A stretch of DNA of 20,871 nt, taken from a virus. The translations under genes and the position numbers were made by a program. Location of the stretch: the IMG/VR virus record IMGVR_UViG_3300011114_000875, positions 1 to 20,871 of that record; one strand, given 5' to 3'. Of this stretch, positions 11,277 to 20,645 are shown one piece after another. Position 1 is the stretch's first letter. Each line of letters begins with the position of its first letter. The notes under the pieces were generated by a model. The model was given only the letters and a program-made list of their open reading frames with translations, had not been told where the DNA came from and searched no databases.

Positions 11277-11957
11277 TTAGAATTCAGCAGAACCATCAGC
11301 AAGGCACTTTTTGGCTTTATCAATAATACATCGCTGGATATTATGAAGCTGTTTGTATCCGGGCGTTCTTCCTGTCTCTGATGTAGTATATCCCAATTCA
11401 AGCGCGACCTCTTCTTCAGTCTTGCCATCGAGATATAGGGACTGATATACCATTTTTTCGATAGGTCGTAGTATCTGCATTAAACGAGCGGTCAATTTTT
11501 CAGCACCAGCATCTATATCAGTACTTTCATCTGGACGTTCGGAGAGTTCGTGTTCATGGAACTCCATAGAGACAGGAACTTTAATATTGAAGGCGTTCTT
11601 TTTCCGCTTCTGCCAGTTCTTAAAGAGCGGACAAGCATCGCATTGCGAACCATATACAGTACATCCTTCGTCTGGCAACTGAGACGGGCATTTTTGACAT
11701 GGTCTAGCATAATTGCTGTAATTATTGCGGATTAGGTTTTTAATCTGATGAGATATGACTTTATTGAGCCACGGCTCGAATGGAAGGCTTTGGTCATACT
11801 TATCCCATTTTTTATAGACGTGTATCCGTATGATTTGGGAAACGTCATCATAATCCATCCAAGCCAAAGAAGTCAGACTCCACTTATTTTTGCGCTTTTT
11901 GAGATTCGTATCTATGATGTCAGAATAGTCTTCAAAAGTTTTAAGTGGGGTTGTCAT
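11277..11957 (-). CDS. Phage sigma-70-family factor with a cysteine-rich insert
   Basis: The 226-residue protein has a region 2-like N-terminal segment (about 31-85) including DYDDVSQIIRIHVYKKWDKYD and FEPWLNKVISHQIKNLIRNN, the core-binding and -10-binding helices. A region 4-like C-terminal segment (158-220) has LRPIEKMVYQSLYLDGKTEEEVALELGY followed by a recognition helix. Between them sits a cysteine cluster (C87, C90, C99, C106, C109) likely to bind zinc, where larger sigma factors have region 3. The build resembles ECF sigmas and gp55-type late factors of T4-like phages. It would redirect host RNA polymerase to late promoters. Its place directly upstream of packaging and virion genes fits. 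Its start overlaps the previous stop by one base (TAATG). Confidence 0.8.
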   Translation of the reverse strand: MTTPLKTFEDYSDIIDTNLKKRKNKWSLTSLAWMDYDDVSQIIRIHVYKKWDKYDQSLPFEPWLNKVISHQIKNLIRNNYSNYARPCQKCPSQLPDEGCTVYGSQCDACPLFKNWQKRKKNAFNIKVPVSMEFHEHELSERPDESTDIDAGAEKLTARLMQILRPIEKMVYQSLYLDGKTEEEVALELGYTTSETGRTPGYKQLHNIQRCIIDKAKKCLADGSAEF

Positions 11958-17125: not shown

Positions 17126-17160
17126 CTGGCACGGAACCTGCCGAGCAAGTCCCGTGCCAA
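17126..17160. repeat. Inverted-repeat element copy 0 (16-3-16)
   Basis: The left arm is CTGGCACG-GAAC-CTGC, the loop CGA, and the right arm GCAAG-TCC-CGTGCCAA. Read on the minus strand, the arms pair over 14 bases with two G-U pairs. It begins 11 bases beyond the stop of the minus-strand acidic protein gene. Both arms fit a sigma-54 -24/-12 pattern (GG-N10-GC). Confidence 0.75.
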
Positions 17161-17171
17161 CCCAGCACGGC

Positions 17172-17429
17172 CTAGTAATCTTCGCGTGCGAACTCTCGCC
17201 GCTCGTCTTCGTCTTCGCGTTCGTACTCTGGCCCCTCCGCCCGTTCACGTTGGCGCTCGCACCACGCTTCGTACTCTTGGTCAGCGTTCAAACCGTTTTC
17301 CGAAAGGCCGTTTTCGTCGTACTCGTTTTCATCTTCGTACCCATCGTCGCCGAATGCGGCGTCAATGTCTTTGTCGGTACAACCATCGGGCAGATTCCCC
17401 GACGTACCGAAATGCCCGAACGAGTTCAA
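17172..17429 (-). CDS. Very acidic small protein, probable TTG start
   Basis: The product (85 residues) is dominated by Asp and Glu, with DDGYEDENEYDE and EREDEDERRE runs, and resembles other small acidic phage proteins or DNA mimics only in charge. The frame has no internal ATG in a sensible place; the ATG at 17492 would overlap the upstream gene by 67 bases. A TTG at 17429 overlaps the upstream TGA stop as TTGA, a typical translational-coupling arrangement, so I choose it. No function is claimed. Confidence 0.55.
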   Translation of the reverse strand: MNSFGHFGTSGNLPDGCTDKDIDAAFGDDGYEDENEYDENGLSENGLNADQEYEAWCERQRERAEGPEYEREDEDERREFAREDY

Positions 17430-17662
17430 GCGACACCGCCCTTCGCAAGAAACGCTTTGCCGACTGCTTCCGCGAGCGTCGCGCATTGCCAAGACTTCAC
17501 GCGGTCAACGCTCGTACCGTCGTAAACGAGCGAGACGCGAAACGTAGTCGTCAGTGTGTGTTCGCCGTGGGGCGCATGGTGCCAAGTTTGCTCCTCGACG
17601 CTAACAGATGCGAGAGGGAACGCCGACGCCAACACCGAAACCGCATTTTCAATAGTTGTCAT
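17426..17662 (-). CDS. Small unknown protein of mobile-element type
   Basis: I choose the ATG at 17662 (78 residues, MTTIENAVSVLASAF), not the one at 17716, which lies in a structured leader. The middle TFRVSLVYDGTSVDRVKSW and the C-terminal ATLAEAVGKAFLA look like a small alpha/beta fold with a final helix. No family is recognised. A promoter with a TAATCT -10 box lies upstream at 17717-17744, giving a leader of about 48 bases. The acidic protein gene follows with a 4-base overlap. Confidence 0.6.
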   Translation of the reverse strand: MTTIENAVSVLASAFPLASVSVEEQTWHHAPHGEHTLTTTFRVSLVYDGTSVDRVKSWQCATLAEAVGKAFLAKGGVA

Positions 17663-17673
17663 AATCTTTTCTT

Positions 17674-17710
17674 GTCGGTGGGGAGGGCTTCCGGCCTTCC
17701 CGCTCTCGAC
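17674..17710 (-). promoter_or_regulatory. Possible hairpin leader of the 17662 gene
   Basis: On the minus strand, GTCG (17710-17707) can pair with CGAC (17677-17674), enclosing GGG/CCC and GGC/GCC stems around a CGGAA loop. The GTCGAGAGCG block that starts it is also found just downstream of the promoter of the 19381 gene. This suggests a shared leader sequence. Confidence 0.35.
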
Positions 17711-17716
17711 AACCAA

Positions 17717-17744
17717 AGATTAGCAGAACCGACGTACGACACAA
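17717..17744 (-). promoter_or_regulatory. Promoter, TTGTGT-N16-TAATCT
   Basis: The -35 TTGTGT (17744-17739) and -10 TAATCT (17722-17717) are 16 bases apart, with transcription expected near 17710 toward the 17662 gene. The same TAATCT hexamer and spacing recur upstream of the 19381 gene, and TAATCT recurs twice more on the plus strand. Confidence 0.6.
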
Positions 17745-17870
17745 GGGAAATCGAAAAACAATTCACCATCAAAAACACTTTTCCTCTTGACTCAACACGT
17801 TTTTTCCTATAGTATCCCCGCCGTTTCCCTAGCTCAAAAGAAAATGCTTGACAAGTAAAAACATTTGTGA

Positions 17871-17909
17871 GTGGCACGTATCATGCTGTTGTAGCACCTA
17901 CCATGCCAA
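17871..17909. repeat. Inverted-repeat element copy 1 (16-7-16)
   Basis: The left arm is GTGGCACG-TATC-ATGC, the loop TGTTGTA, and the right arm GCACCTACC-ATGCCAA. It lies in the 660-base spacer between divergent small genes. A TGACAAGT at 17849 precedes it, as a fuller TGTCAAGTGC block precedes copies 3 and 5. Confidence 0.65.
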
Positions 17910-17930
17910 CCGAGGCACTGTACACGCGAT

Positions 17931-18014
17931 AGTCATAAACCCCTCTGTACCAAGTACTTACGAAAACGCGCTGCGGCAAGTCATAAGTACTTGATAATCA
18001 ACACCTTATGACTT
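17931..18014. repeat. AGTCATAA/AAGTACTT module, copy A
   Basis: AGTCATAA at 17931, the palindrome AAGTACTT at 17952 and again at 17985 (33 bases apart) form the core. The hairpin arms AAGTCATAAG (17978-17987) and CTTATGACTT (18005-18014) are perfectly complementary around a 17-base loop with CTTGATAATCA. The same layout recurs in modules B, C and D. Confidence 0.75.
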
Positions 18015-18029
18015 TTGCCCTACGCGCTA

Positions 18030-18070
18030 GCACGTTCCATGCCAACCTCGCCTAGCAATCATCATGCCAA
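18030..18070 (-). repeat. Two unpaired right arms of the inverted-repeat family
   Basis: The arms at 18030-18045 and 18055-18070 read on the minus strand as TTGGCATG-GAAC-GTGC and TTGGCATG-ATGA-TTGC. No matching left arm is present. Read leftward they fit sigma-54 type promoters pointing to the minus-strand genes at 17662. Confidence 0.5.
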
Positions 18071-18084
18071 CCTAATAAAAATCT

Positions 18085-18119
18085 TTGGCACGCTTCTTGC
18101 CTAGCATACCCCATGCCAA
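18085..18119. repeat. Inverted-repeat element copy 2 (16-3-16), sigma-54-like left arm
   Basis: The left arm TTGGCACG-CTTC-TTGC matches the sigma-54 consensus exactly, with GG and GC 12 bases apart. The loop is CTA and the right arm GCATACCCC-ATGCCAA. Read rightward, a start near 18112 would transcribe the structured leader and the genes at 18323 and 18574. Confidence 0.65.
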
Positions 18120-18234
18120 TCTCAAAAGAATCTTCGCGCACGAGAAAATCGGGGGATGCTACTAGAAAATTCGCATTGCGTCAAGGAATACTTTCAAATC
18201 ATGCAAAATAATTCTCAAAGATTCCTTGTGTTCG

Positions 18235-18302
18235 CCTGCCCGCCTGCTAAAGTTTGGGCAGGTAAGAACGGGACGGCGCGAAGGAAGCGCCCCCGGCTTA
18301 CC
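18235..18302 (+). promoter_or_regulatory. Structured 5' leader (two adjoining hairpins)
   Basis: Hairpin 1 pairs CCTGCCC (18235-18241) with GGGCAGG (18256-18262), 7 of 7 bases. Hairpin 2 pairs GGTAAG with CTTACC, CGGG with CCCG and GGCGC with GCGCC (18261-18302) around a GAAGGAA loop. The two share GG at 18261-18262, so their bases compete. An A-rich tract then leads to the ATG at 18323. There is no U-run, so it is not an intrinsic terminator in this direction. It may be a cis-acting RNA; I recognise no known riboswitch. Confidence 0.5.
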
Positions 18303-18322
18303 CCAAAAAAAATAATAAAATT

Positions 18323-18544
18323 ATGTACCCTCTTACTCCTGAAGAAACGGTCGCCCTATATGTCGCAGTTTTAAGCCACGAAACCAAGTGCCGATTTGCC
18401 CTTGAGGATGTCGAAAAAGAGCTTGCAAAACGCCCCGACAGCGCGTACCTTCAAGCAGGTCTGAACATCTGCAAATCCGAATACGAAAAAGCAAAAGATG
18501 CCCTTGCAATTGCGTACCGTATCCTGCACACTTCGCCTAAGTAA
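18323..18544 (+). CDS. Small helical unknown protein
   Basis: The 73-residue product is almost wholly helical. MYPLTPEETVALYVAVLSHE is followed by a long charged helix pair (CRFALEDVEKELAKRP, YEKAKDALAIAYRIL), suggesting a two- or three-helix bundle. No family is recognised. It has an A-rich leader (AAAAAAAATAATAAAA) instead of a Shine-Dalgarno, preceded by a strongly structured segment. Its stop is followed directly by a dinucleotide repeat and then the next gene, so the two are probably co-transcribed. Confidence 0.65.
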   Translation: MYPLTPEETVALYVAVLSHETKCRFALEDVEKELAKRPDSAYLQAGLNICKSEYEKAKDALAIAYRILHTSPK

Positions 18545-18566
18545 CACACACACACACACACACACA
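18544..18566 (+). repeat. (AC)11 microsatellite between two genes
   Basis: Eleven AC units plus a final A fill most of the 29-base gap between the 18323 and 18574 genes, and the last A of the stop codon is its first base. Slippage would change only the spacing between the genes. In RNA it is an unstructured leader for the second gene. Confidence 0.9.
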
Positions 18567-18573
18567 AAAAACT

Positions 18574-18780
18574 ATGAATGCAACACCCATGTACGACGCA
18601 ATCGAACGCGGAGAAGAAATTAACCTTGACAATCTGCCCGAAGTCAAGTACGAAAAACCCTCGCGACGTTGGCAACGCAAACACAATTTCGCGCACAAAC
18701 TCCTTGACGATGCGCGGAGAATTTCGGCGTGTGTCGAAACGTGCTACTTTTCGCACCGGAAAACGCCGATTGAAGCGTGA
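18574..18780 (+). CDS. Small basic unknown protein
   Basis: The 68-residue product begins MNATPMYDAIERGEEINLDNLPEVKYEKPSRR in an extended acidic-to-basic region, then has a basic helical half with KHNFAHKLLDDARRISAC. A second in-frame ATG at 18589 gives a shorter form. It follows the (AC)n tract and an AAAAAACT leader with no Shine-Dalgarno. It ends exactly where composite repeat B begins. The function is unknown. Confidence 0.6.
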   Translation: MNATPMYDAIERGEEINLDNLPEVKYEKPSRRWQRKHNFAHKLLDDARRISACVETCYFSHRKTPIEA

Positions 18781-18815
18781 TTGTCAAGTGCTAATTCTCA
18801 CCATTTTTCTGGTGG

Positions 18816-18851
18816 TTGGCACGCTACTTGCGAAAGCATCTAGTGTGCCAA
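18816..18851. repeat. Inverted-repeat element copy 3 (16-4-16, GAAA loop)
   Basis: The left arm TTGGCACG-CTAC-TTGC is a full sigma-54-like -24/-12 match. The TGC-GAAA-GCA core has a GNRA tetraloop if transcribed. The right arm is GCATCTAG-TGTGCCAA. Read rightward it points into the 3' end of the convergent 19169 gene. Confidence 0.7.
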
Positions 18852-18868
18852 GTCAGAAATAAAACCAA

Positions 18869-18907
18869 TTGGCACGGTACCTGCTAGATAAGCAAGGGCC
18901 GTGCCAA
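18869..18907. repeat. Inverted-repeat element copy 4 (16-7-16)
   Basis: The left arm is TTGGCACG-GTAC-CTGC, the loop TAGATAA, and the right arm GCAAGGGC-CGTGCCAA, which reads on the minus strand as TTGGCACG-GCCC-TTGC. It carries sigma-54-like half-sites facing each other on both strands. Confidence 0.7.
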
Positions 18908-18928
18908 ACGCCTTGCTCAAAACGCAAT

Positions 18929-19012
18929 AGTCACAAGTGCCTCTGTACCAAGTACTTACAGAAACGCCCTCCCGCAAGTCACAAGTACTTGATGTTGAGC
19001 ACCTTATGACTT
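18929..19012. repeat. AGTCATAA/AAGTACTT module, copy B
   Basis: AGTCACAA at 18929 and AAGTACTT at 18950 and 18983 keep the 21- and 33-base spacings of copy A. The arms AAGTCACAAG (18976-18985) and CTTATGACTT (19003-19012) pair with one mismatch around a 17-base loop. Confidence 0.7.
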
Positions 19013-19027
19013 TTGCCCTACACGCTA

Positions 19028-19043
19028 GCAACCTCCATGCCAA
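19028..19043 (-). repeat. Single right arm of the inverted-repeat family
   Basis: The minus strand reads TTGGCATG-GAGG-TTGC, a good -24/-12 type sequence with no partner arm. It lies 15 bases after module B, the same place as the arm at 18030 after module A. Confidence 0.5.
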
Positions 19044-19121
19044 ACGCAAAACAATTTTAACACGGGAAAGCCGGGGATTCTATCAAAATTCTCCGAAAGA
19101 GTCAAATAAAATCTTCAAAAT

Positions 19122-19162
19122 AAAAAAAGAAAAAGCGCGAATTCCCTTGCGAGAACCCGCGC
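19122..19162 (-). terminator. Intrinsic terminator of the 19381 gene
   Basis: On the minus strand GCGCGGGTTC pairs with GAATTCGCGC (10 pairs, two G-U) around an 8-base loop. It is followed by TTTTTCTTTTTTT. It begins 7 bases after the stop codon at 19169. Confidence 0.8.
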
Positions 19163-19168
19163 CGCGTG

Positions 19169-19381
19169 TTAAACCGAATCGTTCGCGCCGCCCGCTGTTT
19201 CGGGGTCGTCAACATCGTCAAGCCAATCGTCGCCATCGTCGCGAATTTCGCGGTCGTCTTCCTCGTACTCCGCGTCAATGCGCGGGTCGGGGCGCTCGTA
19301 CACTTCTTCGCCCTCGACATCGTCGGACGTTACGCCGTGCGGAAGGTCGGGATTCGCGGTCGGAATTGCCATCGGGTGCAT
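19169..19381 (-). CDS. Small acidic protein
   Basis: I choose the ATG at 19381 (70 residues); the next ATG at 19372 would give 67. The longer frame from 19516 crosses the promoter and is rejected. The protein starts with a Pro-rich segment (MAIPTANPDLPHG) and continues as a highly acidic tail (DDVEGEEVYERPDPRID, EEDDREIRDDGDDW). It resembles the acidic protein at 17172 in composition and orientation, and the two upstream regions share promoter and leader blocks, so they may be distant paralogues. It has its own promoter and terminator, making it a single-gene unit. Confidence 0.6.
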   Translation of the reverse strand: MHPMAIPTANPDLPHGVTSDDVEGEEVYERPDPRIDAEYEEDDREIRDDGDDWLDDVDDPETAGGANDSV

Positions 19382-19428
19382 AAGTTTTTTTTGTTTCGGC
19401 GAGGCGGGTTTCGCTCTCGACTGATAAG

Positions 19429-19456
19429 AGATTAACAAATCACGCGCCGATTGCAA
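19429..19456 (-). promoter_or_regulatory. Promoter, TTGCAA-N16-TAATCT
   Basis: The -35 TTGCAA (19456-19451) and -10 TAATCT (19434-19429) have the same 16-base spacing as the promoter at 17717. The GTCGAGAGCG block follows in both leaders. Transcription is expected near 19422 toward the 19381 gene. Confidence 0.62.
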
Positions 19457-19499
19457 GGAAATTCTCAAAAATAAATCGCATAAAAACTCAAAATAAATC

Positions 19500-19527
19500 T
19501 TGCACTTTCCTGCCAATGCTTTACACT
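19500..19527 (+). promoter_or_regulatory. Promoter, TTGCAC-N16-TACACT
   Basis: The -10 TACACT ends 7 bases before the ATG at 19535, so the transcript would be leaderless or nearly so. It is divergent from the promoter at 19429-19456. Confidence 0.5.
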
Positions 19528-19534
19528 TTGGGCA

Positions 19535-19708
19535 ATGAAATACGAAATGCTAATCGACGGCGACAGGACAGCAAAAACCACAACGCCAATCTTCACCCTG
19601 ACCTTGACGGCGGAGGGTCTGGTGAAATGGGGCATTCGTGGCTTGTGGTTTCTCGCTGGTGGCATCGTTTTCGGAATACTGAACGCGATTCTTTCAGCGA
19701 AATTCTAA
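19535..19708 (+). CDS. Small single-pass membrane protein
   Basis: The 57-residue product, translated by hand, begins MKYEMLIDGDRTAKTTTP and ends in a hydrophobic helix, GLWFLAGGIVFGILNAIL (36-53), then SAKF. One membrane pass with a polar N-terminal half is likely; topology is not clear. It is the best frame here. The overlapping frame from 19516 is polar, low-complexity and has no upstream signal. The promoter at 19500-19527 places the mRNA start at or near its ATG. Small membrane proteins of this kind in phages include holin-like and exclusion proteins, but nothing specific supports either. Confidence 0.55.
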   Translation: MKYEMLIDGDRTAKTTTPIFTLTLTAEGLVKWGIRGLWFLAGGIVFGILNAILSAKF

Positions 19709-19755
19709 ACCTCAAAACTCCTGTCAAGTGCTAATTCTCACAATCGCCGCACTGG

Positions 19756-19791
19756 TTGGCACGCTTTTTGCGAAAGCAACTGTCATGCCAA
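19756..19791. repeat. Inverted-repeat element copy 5 (16-4-16, GAAA loop)
   Basis: The left arm is TTGGCACG-CTTT-TTGC, the loop GAAA and the right arm GCAACTGTC-ATGCCAA. The left arm fits the sigma-54 consensus with GG and GC 12 bases apart. It is the counterpart of copy 3. Confidence 0.7.
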
Positions 19792-19806
19792 GCGCCAAAT
19801 AAAATA

Positions 19807-19841
19807 ACGGCACGGGACTTGCTAGGCAGGTTCCGTGCCAA
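19807..19841. repeat. Inverted-repeat element copy 6 (16-3-16)
   Basis: GGCACGGGACTTGC (19809-19822) and GCAGGTTCCGTGCC (19826-19839) pair over all 14 positions with two G-U pairs, around a TAG loop. Copy 0 is nearly the same sequence in the opposite orientation. Confidence 0.75.
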
Positions 19842-19861
19842 ACTTTTGTCAAAAATGCAAT

Positions 19862-19945
19862 AGTCATAAACCCCTCATTATCAAGTACTTGCAAAAACGC
19901 CCAGCCAAAAGTCATAAGTCCTTGATAGTCAACGAGTTGTGACTT
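19862..19945. repeat. AGTCATAA/AAGTACTT module, copy C
   Basis: AGTCATAA at 19862, AAGTACTT at 19883 and a degenerate AAGTCCTT at 19916 keep the 21- and 33-base spacings. The arms AAGTCATAAG (19909-19918) and GTTGTGACTT (19936-19945) pair except for the innermost pair, with one G-U, around a 17-base loop. Confidence 0.68.
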
Positions 19946-20116
19946 TTTCGCGCCCCACGAGTCGTAACCCGTTGCGCCGCAGGTACTTACGCCCAGTAGC
20001 CCATTTTCGCGCCTTTGTCAAGGATTATTTAGACTATTTAAGTATTTCTGGGTATTTGGGCAAAATTTGTTTACTTTGTATTTGACTATTTGGGAGAAAC
20101 CGGGCAAGCTTAGGTA

Positions 20117-20569: not shown

Positions 20570-20582
20570 CCCATTGAAAATC

Positions 20583-20645
20583 AAGCACTTAGGTAAGTGC
20601 CCTCCCGCAAGTTGTAACCCCTTGATAATCAGCGGCTTACAACAA
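20583..20645. repeat. AGTCATAA/AAGTACTT module, copy D (divergent)
   Basis: AAGCACTT at 20583 replaces the first palindrome and is followed by its mirror, giving GCACTTA-GG-TAAGTGC. The hairpin core GTTGTAA (20611-20617) pairs with TTACAAC (20637-20643). Two base pairs differ from copy A on both sides. The 33-base spacing and 17-base loop are kept. It starts 14 bases after the stop of the 20393 gene. Confidence 0.65.

What the first reader, a model, noticed from the sequence alone, without database searches (positions are those of the whole stretch)
17126..19841. Dispersed 35-39 base inverted repeats with strict 16-loop-16 geometry and sigma-54-like arms
Seven copies (17126, 17871, 18085, 18816, 18869, 19756, 19807) all have a 16-base left arm (N)TGGCACG-N4-YTGC or a close variant and a loop of 3, 4 or 7 bases. 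A 16-base right arm, GCA-N5-YRTGCCAA in most copies, completes each one. The outer and inner bases pair while the five central bases vary and often do not pair. The left arms match the sigma-54 -24/-12 consensus (GG-N10-GC), and in several copies both arms do, on opposite strands. The elements could be paired sigma-54 promoters, protein-bound palindromes, or a mobile hairpin family. Orientation relative to genes does not suit promoters alone: copies 3 and 4 point into the end of a convergent gene.
Basis: partly seen in the sequence, partly recalled or inferred. Interest (0 to 1): 0.85.

Follow-up and report, generated by a model that had tools for sequence, protein, structure and literature searches.

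The report
Face-to-face sigma-54 sites in phages
Between its small genes this phage carries pairs of binding sites for the host's alternative transcription factor sigma-54, set face to face; the same arrangement recurs in many unrelated phages but hardly ever in bacterial genomes, and in one well-studied Pseudomonas phage it marks exactly two measured non-coding RNAs, so it is probably a widespread, overlooked phage control element.

Summary
The window (20,871 b fragment of an uncultured tailed phage) holds seven 35-39 b palindromes plus three unpaired half-sites between 17.1 and 19.85 kb. Each half-site is a near-perfect sigma-54 (RpoN) -24/-12 element: with a matrix built only from 42 ChIP-seq-proven E. 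coli sigma-54 sites, the 16 best positions of the whole window on both strands are half-sites of these elements. The variable arm cores do not covary over 133 distinct palindromes, so this is not a folded hairpin but two duplex sites face to face, 3-8 b apart, never 0-2.
The arrangement is common in viral contigs (at least 55 unrelated DNA clusters, GC 30-68%) but gives only 6 hits in 257 Gb of prokaryote genomes. It occurs in cultured Pseudomonas and Vibrio phages. In phage PAK_P4 the eight best sigma-54 sites of 93 kb all fall inside two RNA-seq-defined antisense RNAs. None of 49 searched virus records encodes sigma-54, so host RpoN is the likely reader.
Best explanation: palindromic, bidirectional host-sigma-54 promoters for short non-coding or antisense RNAs. 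Rivals: sigma-54 decoy arrays, or closed-complex roadblocks. Recognition by sigma-54 is well supported; what binding achieves is inferred.

The parts
17126..17160 (.). palindrome 1: two sigma-54 half-sites face to face (loop 3), just past the stop of the - strand gene 17172-17492
   Evidence: 15.1 and 18.4 bits
17871..17909 (.). palindrome 2 (loop 7); + arm precedes structured element 17926-18016
   Evidence: 16.0 and 13.5 bits
18030..18045 (-). single half-site TTGGCATGGAACGTGC
   Evidence: 13.9 bits
18055..18070 (-). single half-site TTGGCATGATGATTGC
   Evidence: 18.0 bits
18085..18119 (.). palindrome 3 (loop 3)
   Evidence: 17.8 and 13.5 bits
18816..18851 (.). palindrome 4 (loop 4), between convergent small genes
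   Evidence: 18.3 and 15.9 bits
18869..18907 (.). palindrome 5 (loop 7); + arm precedes structured element 18924-19014
   Evidence: 17.6 and 18.3 bits
19028..19043 (-). single half-site TTGGCATGGAGGTTGC
   Evidence: 15.7 bits
19756..19791 (.). palindrome 6 (loop 4)
   Evidence: 19.2 and 18.5 bits
19807..19841 (.). palindrome 7 (loop 3); + arm precedes structured element 19857-19947
   Evidence: 11.3 and 14.4 bits
17926..18016 (+). structured repeat D1 copy 1, begins at +29 of the +1 predicted for the + arm of palindrome 2
   Evidence: (z -5.0)
18924..19014 (+). structured repeat D1 copy 2, begins at +29 from palindrome 5
   Evidence: (z -3.3)
19857..19947 (+). structured repeat D1 copy 3, begins at +24 from palindrome 7
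   Evidence: (z -2.9)
20582..20639 (+). D3, partial fourth copy of the structured repeat, without a palindrome, after a small gene; keeps the end hairpin with two double changes

Best explanation
Each element is a pair of overlapping host sigma-54 (RpoN) promoter elements (YTGGCAYR-N4-YTGC-W) on opposite strands, their -12 ends 3-8 bases apart. Host Esigma54 can dock in either orientation, one at a time; once a host enhancer-binding protein acts, transcription leaves in either direction from start sites calculated to lie 16-20 b apart, giving short non-coding or antisense RNAs between and across the small phage genes. In the window three such RNAs would contain the structured repeat D1. SHOWN by sequence: the sigma-54 match, the face-to-face geometry with its strict spacing, non-pairing of the cores, virus enrichment, and coincidence with two RNA-seq antisense RNAs in PAK_P4. 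INFERRED: that RpoN binds in the window's host, that both arms fire, and that the RNAs or the act of transcription regulate the neighbouring genes.
For: (1) E. coli ChIP-seq matrix (sites from PMC4591121): top 16 positions of the window are these half-sites. (2) Positions left free by the search pattern follow the published RpoN consensus mrNrYTGGCACG-4-TTGCWNNw (PMC2725144): Y 76% before TGG, W 85% after TGC, r/r/m 58/68/60% upstream. (3) Inner gap of exactly 4: 124 half-sites against 1-8 for gaps 1-3 and 5-7 in 21 virus records. (4) Loops 3-7: at least 120 stretches (capped) for five lengths, against 88 for twenty lengths 8-27, same pattern and collection; loops 0-2 never seen. (5) Only 6 stretches in 257 Gb of genomes. 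(6) In PAK_P4 the eight best sites (16.6 bits or more) all lie in asRNAs as16 and as17; a rigid shift reproduces this in 0.18% of positions. The predicted +1 (55830) is nearer the annotated as16 5' end (55850) than the annotated sigma-70 promoter's expected start, about 55777. (7) Pseudomonas phages Kat, phiPMW, Bitten and SYP keep a palindrome with diverged cores; in Kat, phiPMW and Bitten it lies in alignable homologous DNA. (9) The calculated start spacing resembles bidirectional sigma-70 promoters, commonest 18 b (PMC12825309).
Against: No phage-encoded enhancer-binding protein was found near these sites, so activation would need an unidentified host activator. PAK_P4 RNA ends are rounded, only one strand is annotated, as16 also contains a sigma-70 promoter, and as17's annotated 5' end lies about 250-700 nt upstream of the same-strand sites. 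Half-sites have no sense bias to genes. Sites 26-28 b apart in some arrays are too close for simultaneous holoenzymes. The window's host is unknown. The D1 control test is weak with four sequences.
Confidence: 0.5

Rival explanations
1. Decoy array: sigma-54 or idle Esigma54 is held on phage DNA, lowering host sigma-54 output (surface structures, stress operons) or tying up polymerase; no transcription is needed.
For: RpoN binds promoter DNA without core and Esigma54 forms stable inert closed complexes (PMC2725144). Sites are dense, palindromic and arrayed (up to 9 half-sites in about 200 b), without sense bias, and lie in early or small-gene regions.
Against: Many phages have only 4-9 sites, little titration before replication. 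The coincidence with RNA-seq antisense RNAs is unexplained. W at -11 and the minimum loop fit promoter function as well.
Confidence: 0.22
2. Roadblock or repressor: a closed Esigma54 complex, able to sit in either orientation, blocks or insulates neighbouring sigma-70 transcription without starting RNA itself.
For: Sites are commoner in divergent than in convergent gaps (140 against 47 half-sites). In Kat the palindrome ends about 10 b from a TTGACA-N16-TAGAAT promoter. RpoN holoenzyme acts as a repressor at some E. coli genes (PMC8743547).
Against: Does not explain the tight 3-8 b geometry or the coincidence with asRNAs; elongating polymerase usually displaces bound holoenzyme (established knowledge).
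Confidence: 0.13
3. Operator for a phage- or host-encoded regulator whose half-site merely resembles the sigma-54 consensus.
For: Strict pair geometry and tandem spacings of 26-28 and 46-47 b look like cooperative binding; no transcript from the window is known.
Against: The match extends to weakly conserved and degenerate sigma-54 positions and to spacing 4 only. The element spans at least 55 DNA clusters of GC 30-68%, which favours a conserved host factor. No candidate protein was found.
Confidence: 0.1
4. RNA or DNA hairpin (mobile palindrome, terminator, recombination site).
For: Inverted-repeat symmetry; some copies (1, 5, 7) pair well along the arms.
Against: Core positions pair no more than shuffled arms in 133 non-redundant palindromes; position 9 pairs less, 0.16 against 0.28. 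Unpaired single and tandem half-sites are common.
Confidence: 0.02

Closest known systems
sigma-54 (RpoN) -24/-12 promoters
   Same: Every position of the extended consensus and the 4 b gap; scores like ChIP-proven E. coli sites; E. coli glnAp2 recovered as a control.
   Different: Set in overlapping face-to-face pairs and arrays; no sense relation to genes; carried by phages without sigma-54 or a convincing activator gene near the sites.
Bidirectional (pseudo-symmetric) sigma-70 promoters of E. coli (PMC12825309)
   Same: Symmetry lets RNA polymerase bind in two exclusive orientations and transcribe divergently; calculated start spacing 16-20 b against the commonest 18 b there.
   Different: Those share one symmetric -10 element; here two complete sigma-54 elements abut, and initiation would need an activator. 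Divergent firing is not shown here.
Intragenic and antisense sigma-54 sites of E. coli (PMC4591121)
   Same: sigma-54 sites away from gene starts, some antisense.
   Different: Single sites, mostly weak, with a sense bias in E. coli; none of the listed intergenic sites is palindromic.
Phage antisense RNAs of PAK_P3/PAK_P4
   Same: Two PAK_P4 asRNAs coincide with the sigma-54 clusters.
   Different: The other 15 PAK_P4 asRNAs lie in the structural region without such sites; the papers found here do not name sigma-54 as their source.

Membership tests
sigma-54 promoter element | GG at -24 and GC at -12, 10 b apart, within YTGGCAYR-N4-YTGCW | tested here: met
sigma-54 promoter element | binding by RpoN | not testable with these tools
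   inferred from the ChIP-derived matrix only
sigma-54 promoter element | transcript starting about 12 b past the GC | tested here: inconclusive
   PAK_P4 as16 annotated start 20 b from the predicted +1, but rounded and with a sigma-70 promoter inside
sigma-54 promoter element | enhancer-binding protein available | tested here: inconclusive
   none encoded near the sites in the searched records; host proteins not testable
bidirectional promoter | symmetric core element allowing docking in both orientations | tested here: met
bidirectional promoter | divergent transcripts from one element | not testable with these tools
   only one strand annotated at PAK_P4 as16 and as17
structured hairpin / mobile palindrome | arms covary to keep pairing | tested here: not met
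conventional mRNA promoter | points towards gene starts more often than away | tested here: not met
   singles between tandem genes 21 with against 19 against; all half-sites 71 against 99

The most novel reading that the evidence does not exclude
Many unrelated phages have independently acquired a host-sigma-54 palindrome as a general device for exploiting or blocking sigma-54: arrays that capture Esigma54 in both orientations, coupling phage non-coding transcription to host stress or nitrogen state and at the same time withholding sigma-54 from host surface and defence genes.
Probability: 0.25. Interest if true: 0.9.

Novelty: new variant of a known kind. Interest (0 to 1): 0.77.

Why it matters
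sigma-54 is the one bacterial sigma factor that holds polymerase silently until an activator arrives, and it governs much of the cell exterior. A recurrent, virus-enriched sigma-54 palindrome in many phage lineages would mean that phages commonly read or block this pathway, which I found described in none of the papers searched. It gives a probable promoter to two orphan phage antisense RNAs and can be tested at once in cultured phages (PAK_P4, phiPMW, VCPH).

Tried and rejected
RNA or DNA hairpin: rejected by the pairing test. Known RNA family: no Rfam match and no tRNA in the window. Phage-encoded sigma-54: none in 49 records; phage enhancer-binding protein: two AAA+ hits, both in relatives without sites, and one sub-threshold hit. 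SrpA palindrome of phage K5 (PMC5945682): motif TATC..GATA, unrelated. rpoN link in PMC11877940 concerns the flagellar receptor, not phage promoters. First whole-record palindrome scan used a right arm one base short and is void. Caulobacter phage RW, related in its portal gene to one cluster, has only imperfect half-sites; T4, phiKZ, KVP40, phiCbK and cyanophage S-PM2 have 0-1, T5 has 1 and PAK_P3 has 2. The window's terminase relatives have none in the DNA held. The structured repeat's conserved loop is almost absent elsewhere (1 viral stretch).
Full report
OBSERVATION. The seven palindromes are at the stated places with loops of 3, 7, 3, 4, 7, 4 and 3 bases. Three unpaired half-sites lie at 18030, 18055 and 19028, all on the - strand. 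The window is a 20,871-base virus record with a terminase large subunit, a portal-like protein, PhoH, an ERCC4-type nuclease, a glycosyltransferase and a weak match to a phage RNA polymerase sigma factor family (phrog_1740); it is a fragment of a tailed phage. The elements sit between short genes in the last 4 kb.

WHAT THE HALF-SITE IS. The half-site YTGGCAYR-N4-YTGC-W is the sigma-54 -24/-12 element. The published consensus of 186 RpoN promoters is mrNrYTGGCACG-4 bp-TTGCWNNw (PMC2725144). In 226 arms from 113 non-redundant palindromes the positions not fixed by my pattern follow it: Y 76% before TGG, W 85% after TGC, and r, r, m upstream at 58, 68 and 60%. As an independent test I built a matrix only from the 42 intergenic sense sites mapped by sigma-54 ChIP-seq in E. 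coli (PMC4591121) and scored both strands of the window. The 16 best positions are half-sites of these elements; 17 hits reach 12 bits against 1.1 expected. The inner gap is exactly 4 in 124 cases against 1-8 for each other gap from 1 to 7 in 21 virus records. As a small positive control, E. coli glnAp2 (TTGGCACAGATTTCGC) was recovered upstream of glnA.

GEOMETRY. Pairs are convergent with loops of 3-8, commonest 4. With the same strict pattern in the same collection, five loop lengths (3-7) gave at least 120 stretches, where the scan stopped, while twenty lengths (8-27) gave 88. Loops 0-2 were never seen. The variable core of one arm does not predict that of the other over 133 palindromes; position 9 pairs less than shuffled arms. 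Each arm is therefore read as duplex DNA on its own. By calculation, initiation 12 b past each GC puts the two starts 23 minus loop, that is 16-20 b, apart for loops 3-7, close to the commonest spacing of bidirectional sigma-70 promoters, 18 b (PMC12825309). The minimum loop of 3 may reflect the need for a separate W at -11 of each arm, or simultaneous binding; this is not resolved.

DISTRIBUTION. Some carry arrays of up to nine half-sites in about 200 b with tandem spacings of 26-28 and 46-47 b. The symmetric pattern gave 6 stretches in 257 Gb of one-per-species prokaryote genomes, three on contigs of about 4-5 kb. The patterns differ slightly; searches use the same one. Cultured phages with the element include Pakpunavirus Kat and PAK_P4 (P. 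aeruginosa), phiPMW (P. putida), Bitten (P. protegens), SYP (P. plecoglossicida), and T5-like VCPH and D419/D260 (Vibrio). In VCPH the sites lie in a 1.27 kb gap next to the A2-A3 and A1 genes, which in T5 are on the first-transferred DNA. Phages T4, phiKZ, KVP40, phiCbK and S-PM2 have 0-1 half-site, T5 one.

CONSERVATION. The Kat region is found in 135 Pseudomonas phage records. In the distant relatives phiPMW and Bitten the palindrome persists with altered cores: Kat TTGGCACGCTAATTGCAATTGCAAAGATTGTGCCAT, phiPMW TTGGCATGACTTTTGCAATTGCATAATACGTGCCAA. This indicates selection on consensus positions.

TRANSCRIPTION EVIDENCE. PAK_P4 is annotated with 17 antisense RNAs from RNA-seq. Its eight best sigma-54 sites by the E. 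coli matrix (16.6 bits or more) all fall within as16 (55650-55850) or as17 (67500-68700), the only two asRNAs outside the structural region; a rigid shift of the two site clusters reproduces full containment in 0.18% of positions, independent placement in about 0.05%. as16 begins 20 b from the +1 predicted for one palindrome arm. Caveats: coordinates are rounded, a sigma-70 promoter is annotated inside as16, and as17 extends well upstream of its same-strand sites. The primary paper on PAK_P4 transcription was not held.

GENE RELATION. Over 1,215 half-sites there is no bias towards sense promoters: between tandem genes 71 point with and 99 against them (singles 21 and 19); divergent gaps are favoured over convergent ones, 140 to 47 (crude gene calls). 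In L039, tandem half-sites point away from small genes that have sigma-70-like promoters, into repeated CTGCCATTTTGGCAG hairpins (read by eye). In the window, three palindromes are followed by a 91-base repeat D1, starting at +24 to +29 of the predicted start; the stretch folds better than shuffles (z -5.0, -3.3, -2.9), and two pairs show double changes, although four sequences are too few for significance.

MECHANISM. No sigma-54 gene and no convincing activator near the sites was found, so host RpoN and a host activator would be used. I commit to bidirectional sigma-54 promoters for non-coding or antisense RNA (0.5). Decoy arrays (0.22) and closed-complex roadblocks (0.13) remain open; both also rest on sigma-54 binding, so sigma-54 recognition itself I hold at about 0.88.

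NOVELTY. The parts are known: sigma-54 promoters, bidirectional sigma-70 promoters, phage antisense RNAs. The palindromic sigma-54 pair as a recurrent virus-enriched element was found in none of ten literature searches, which cover open-licence papers only.

Noticed in passing
window 17926-18016, 18924-19014, 19857-19947, 20582-20639: Structured repeat D1/D3 with conserved CTTGATAATCAAC-like loop and an AAGTCATAAG/CTTATGACTT stem followed by T; three of the four copies follow a sigma-54 palindrome. Loop pattern found in only one other viral stretch (L493).
   Followed up: partly
L039 1950-6050: Tandem sigma-54-like half-sites upstream of each small - strand gene, pointing away and running into repeated CTGCCATTTTGGCAG hairpins; candidate small-RNA genes.
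   Followed up: partly
L250 (Vibrio phage D260) 366 and 728: Half-sites overlap start codons: the ATG of ATGCCA lies inside the reverse complement of the -24 element, antisense to the gene.
   Followed up: no
window 11277-11957 (-): 226 aa protein with a weak match to a phage RNA polymerase sigma factor family (phrog_1740, E 9e-5); possibly a late sigma of the sigma-70 type.
   Followed up: no
L146 137-211 and 1761-1810: A Verrucomicrobiia MAG contig of 4.3 kb carries six half-sites; it may be a phage contig binned with its host and so a host clue.
   Followed up: partly
window 18782-18804 and 19722-19744: TGTCAAGTGCTAATTCTCAC(C/A)AT repeated about 12 b upstream of palindromes 4 and 6; possible activator or UP-like element.
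   Followed up: no
   Followed up: partly
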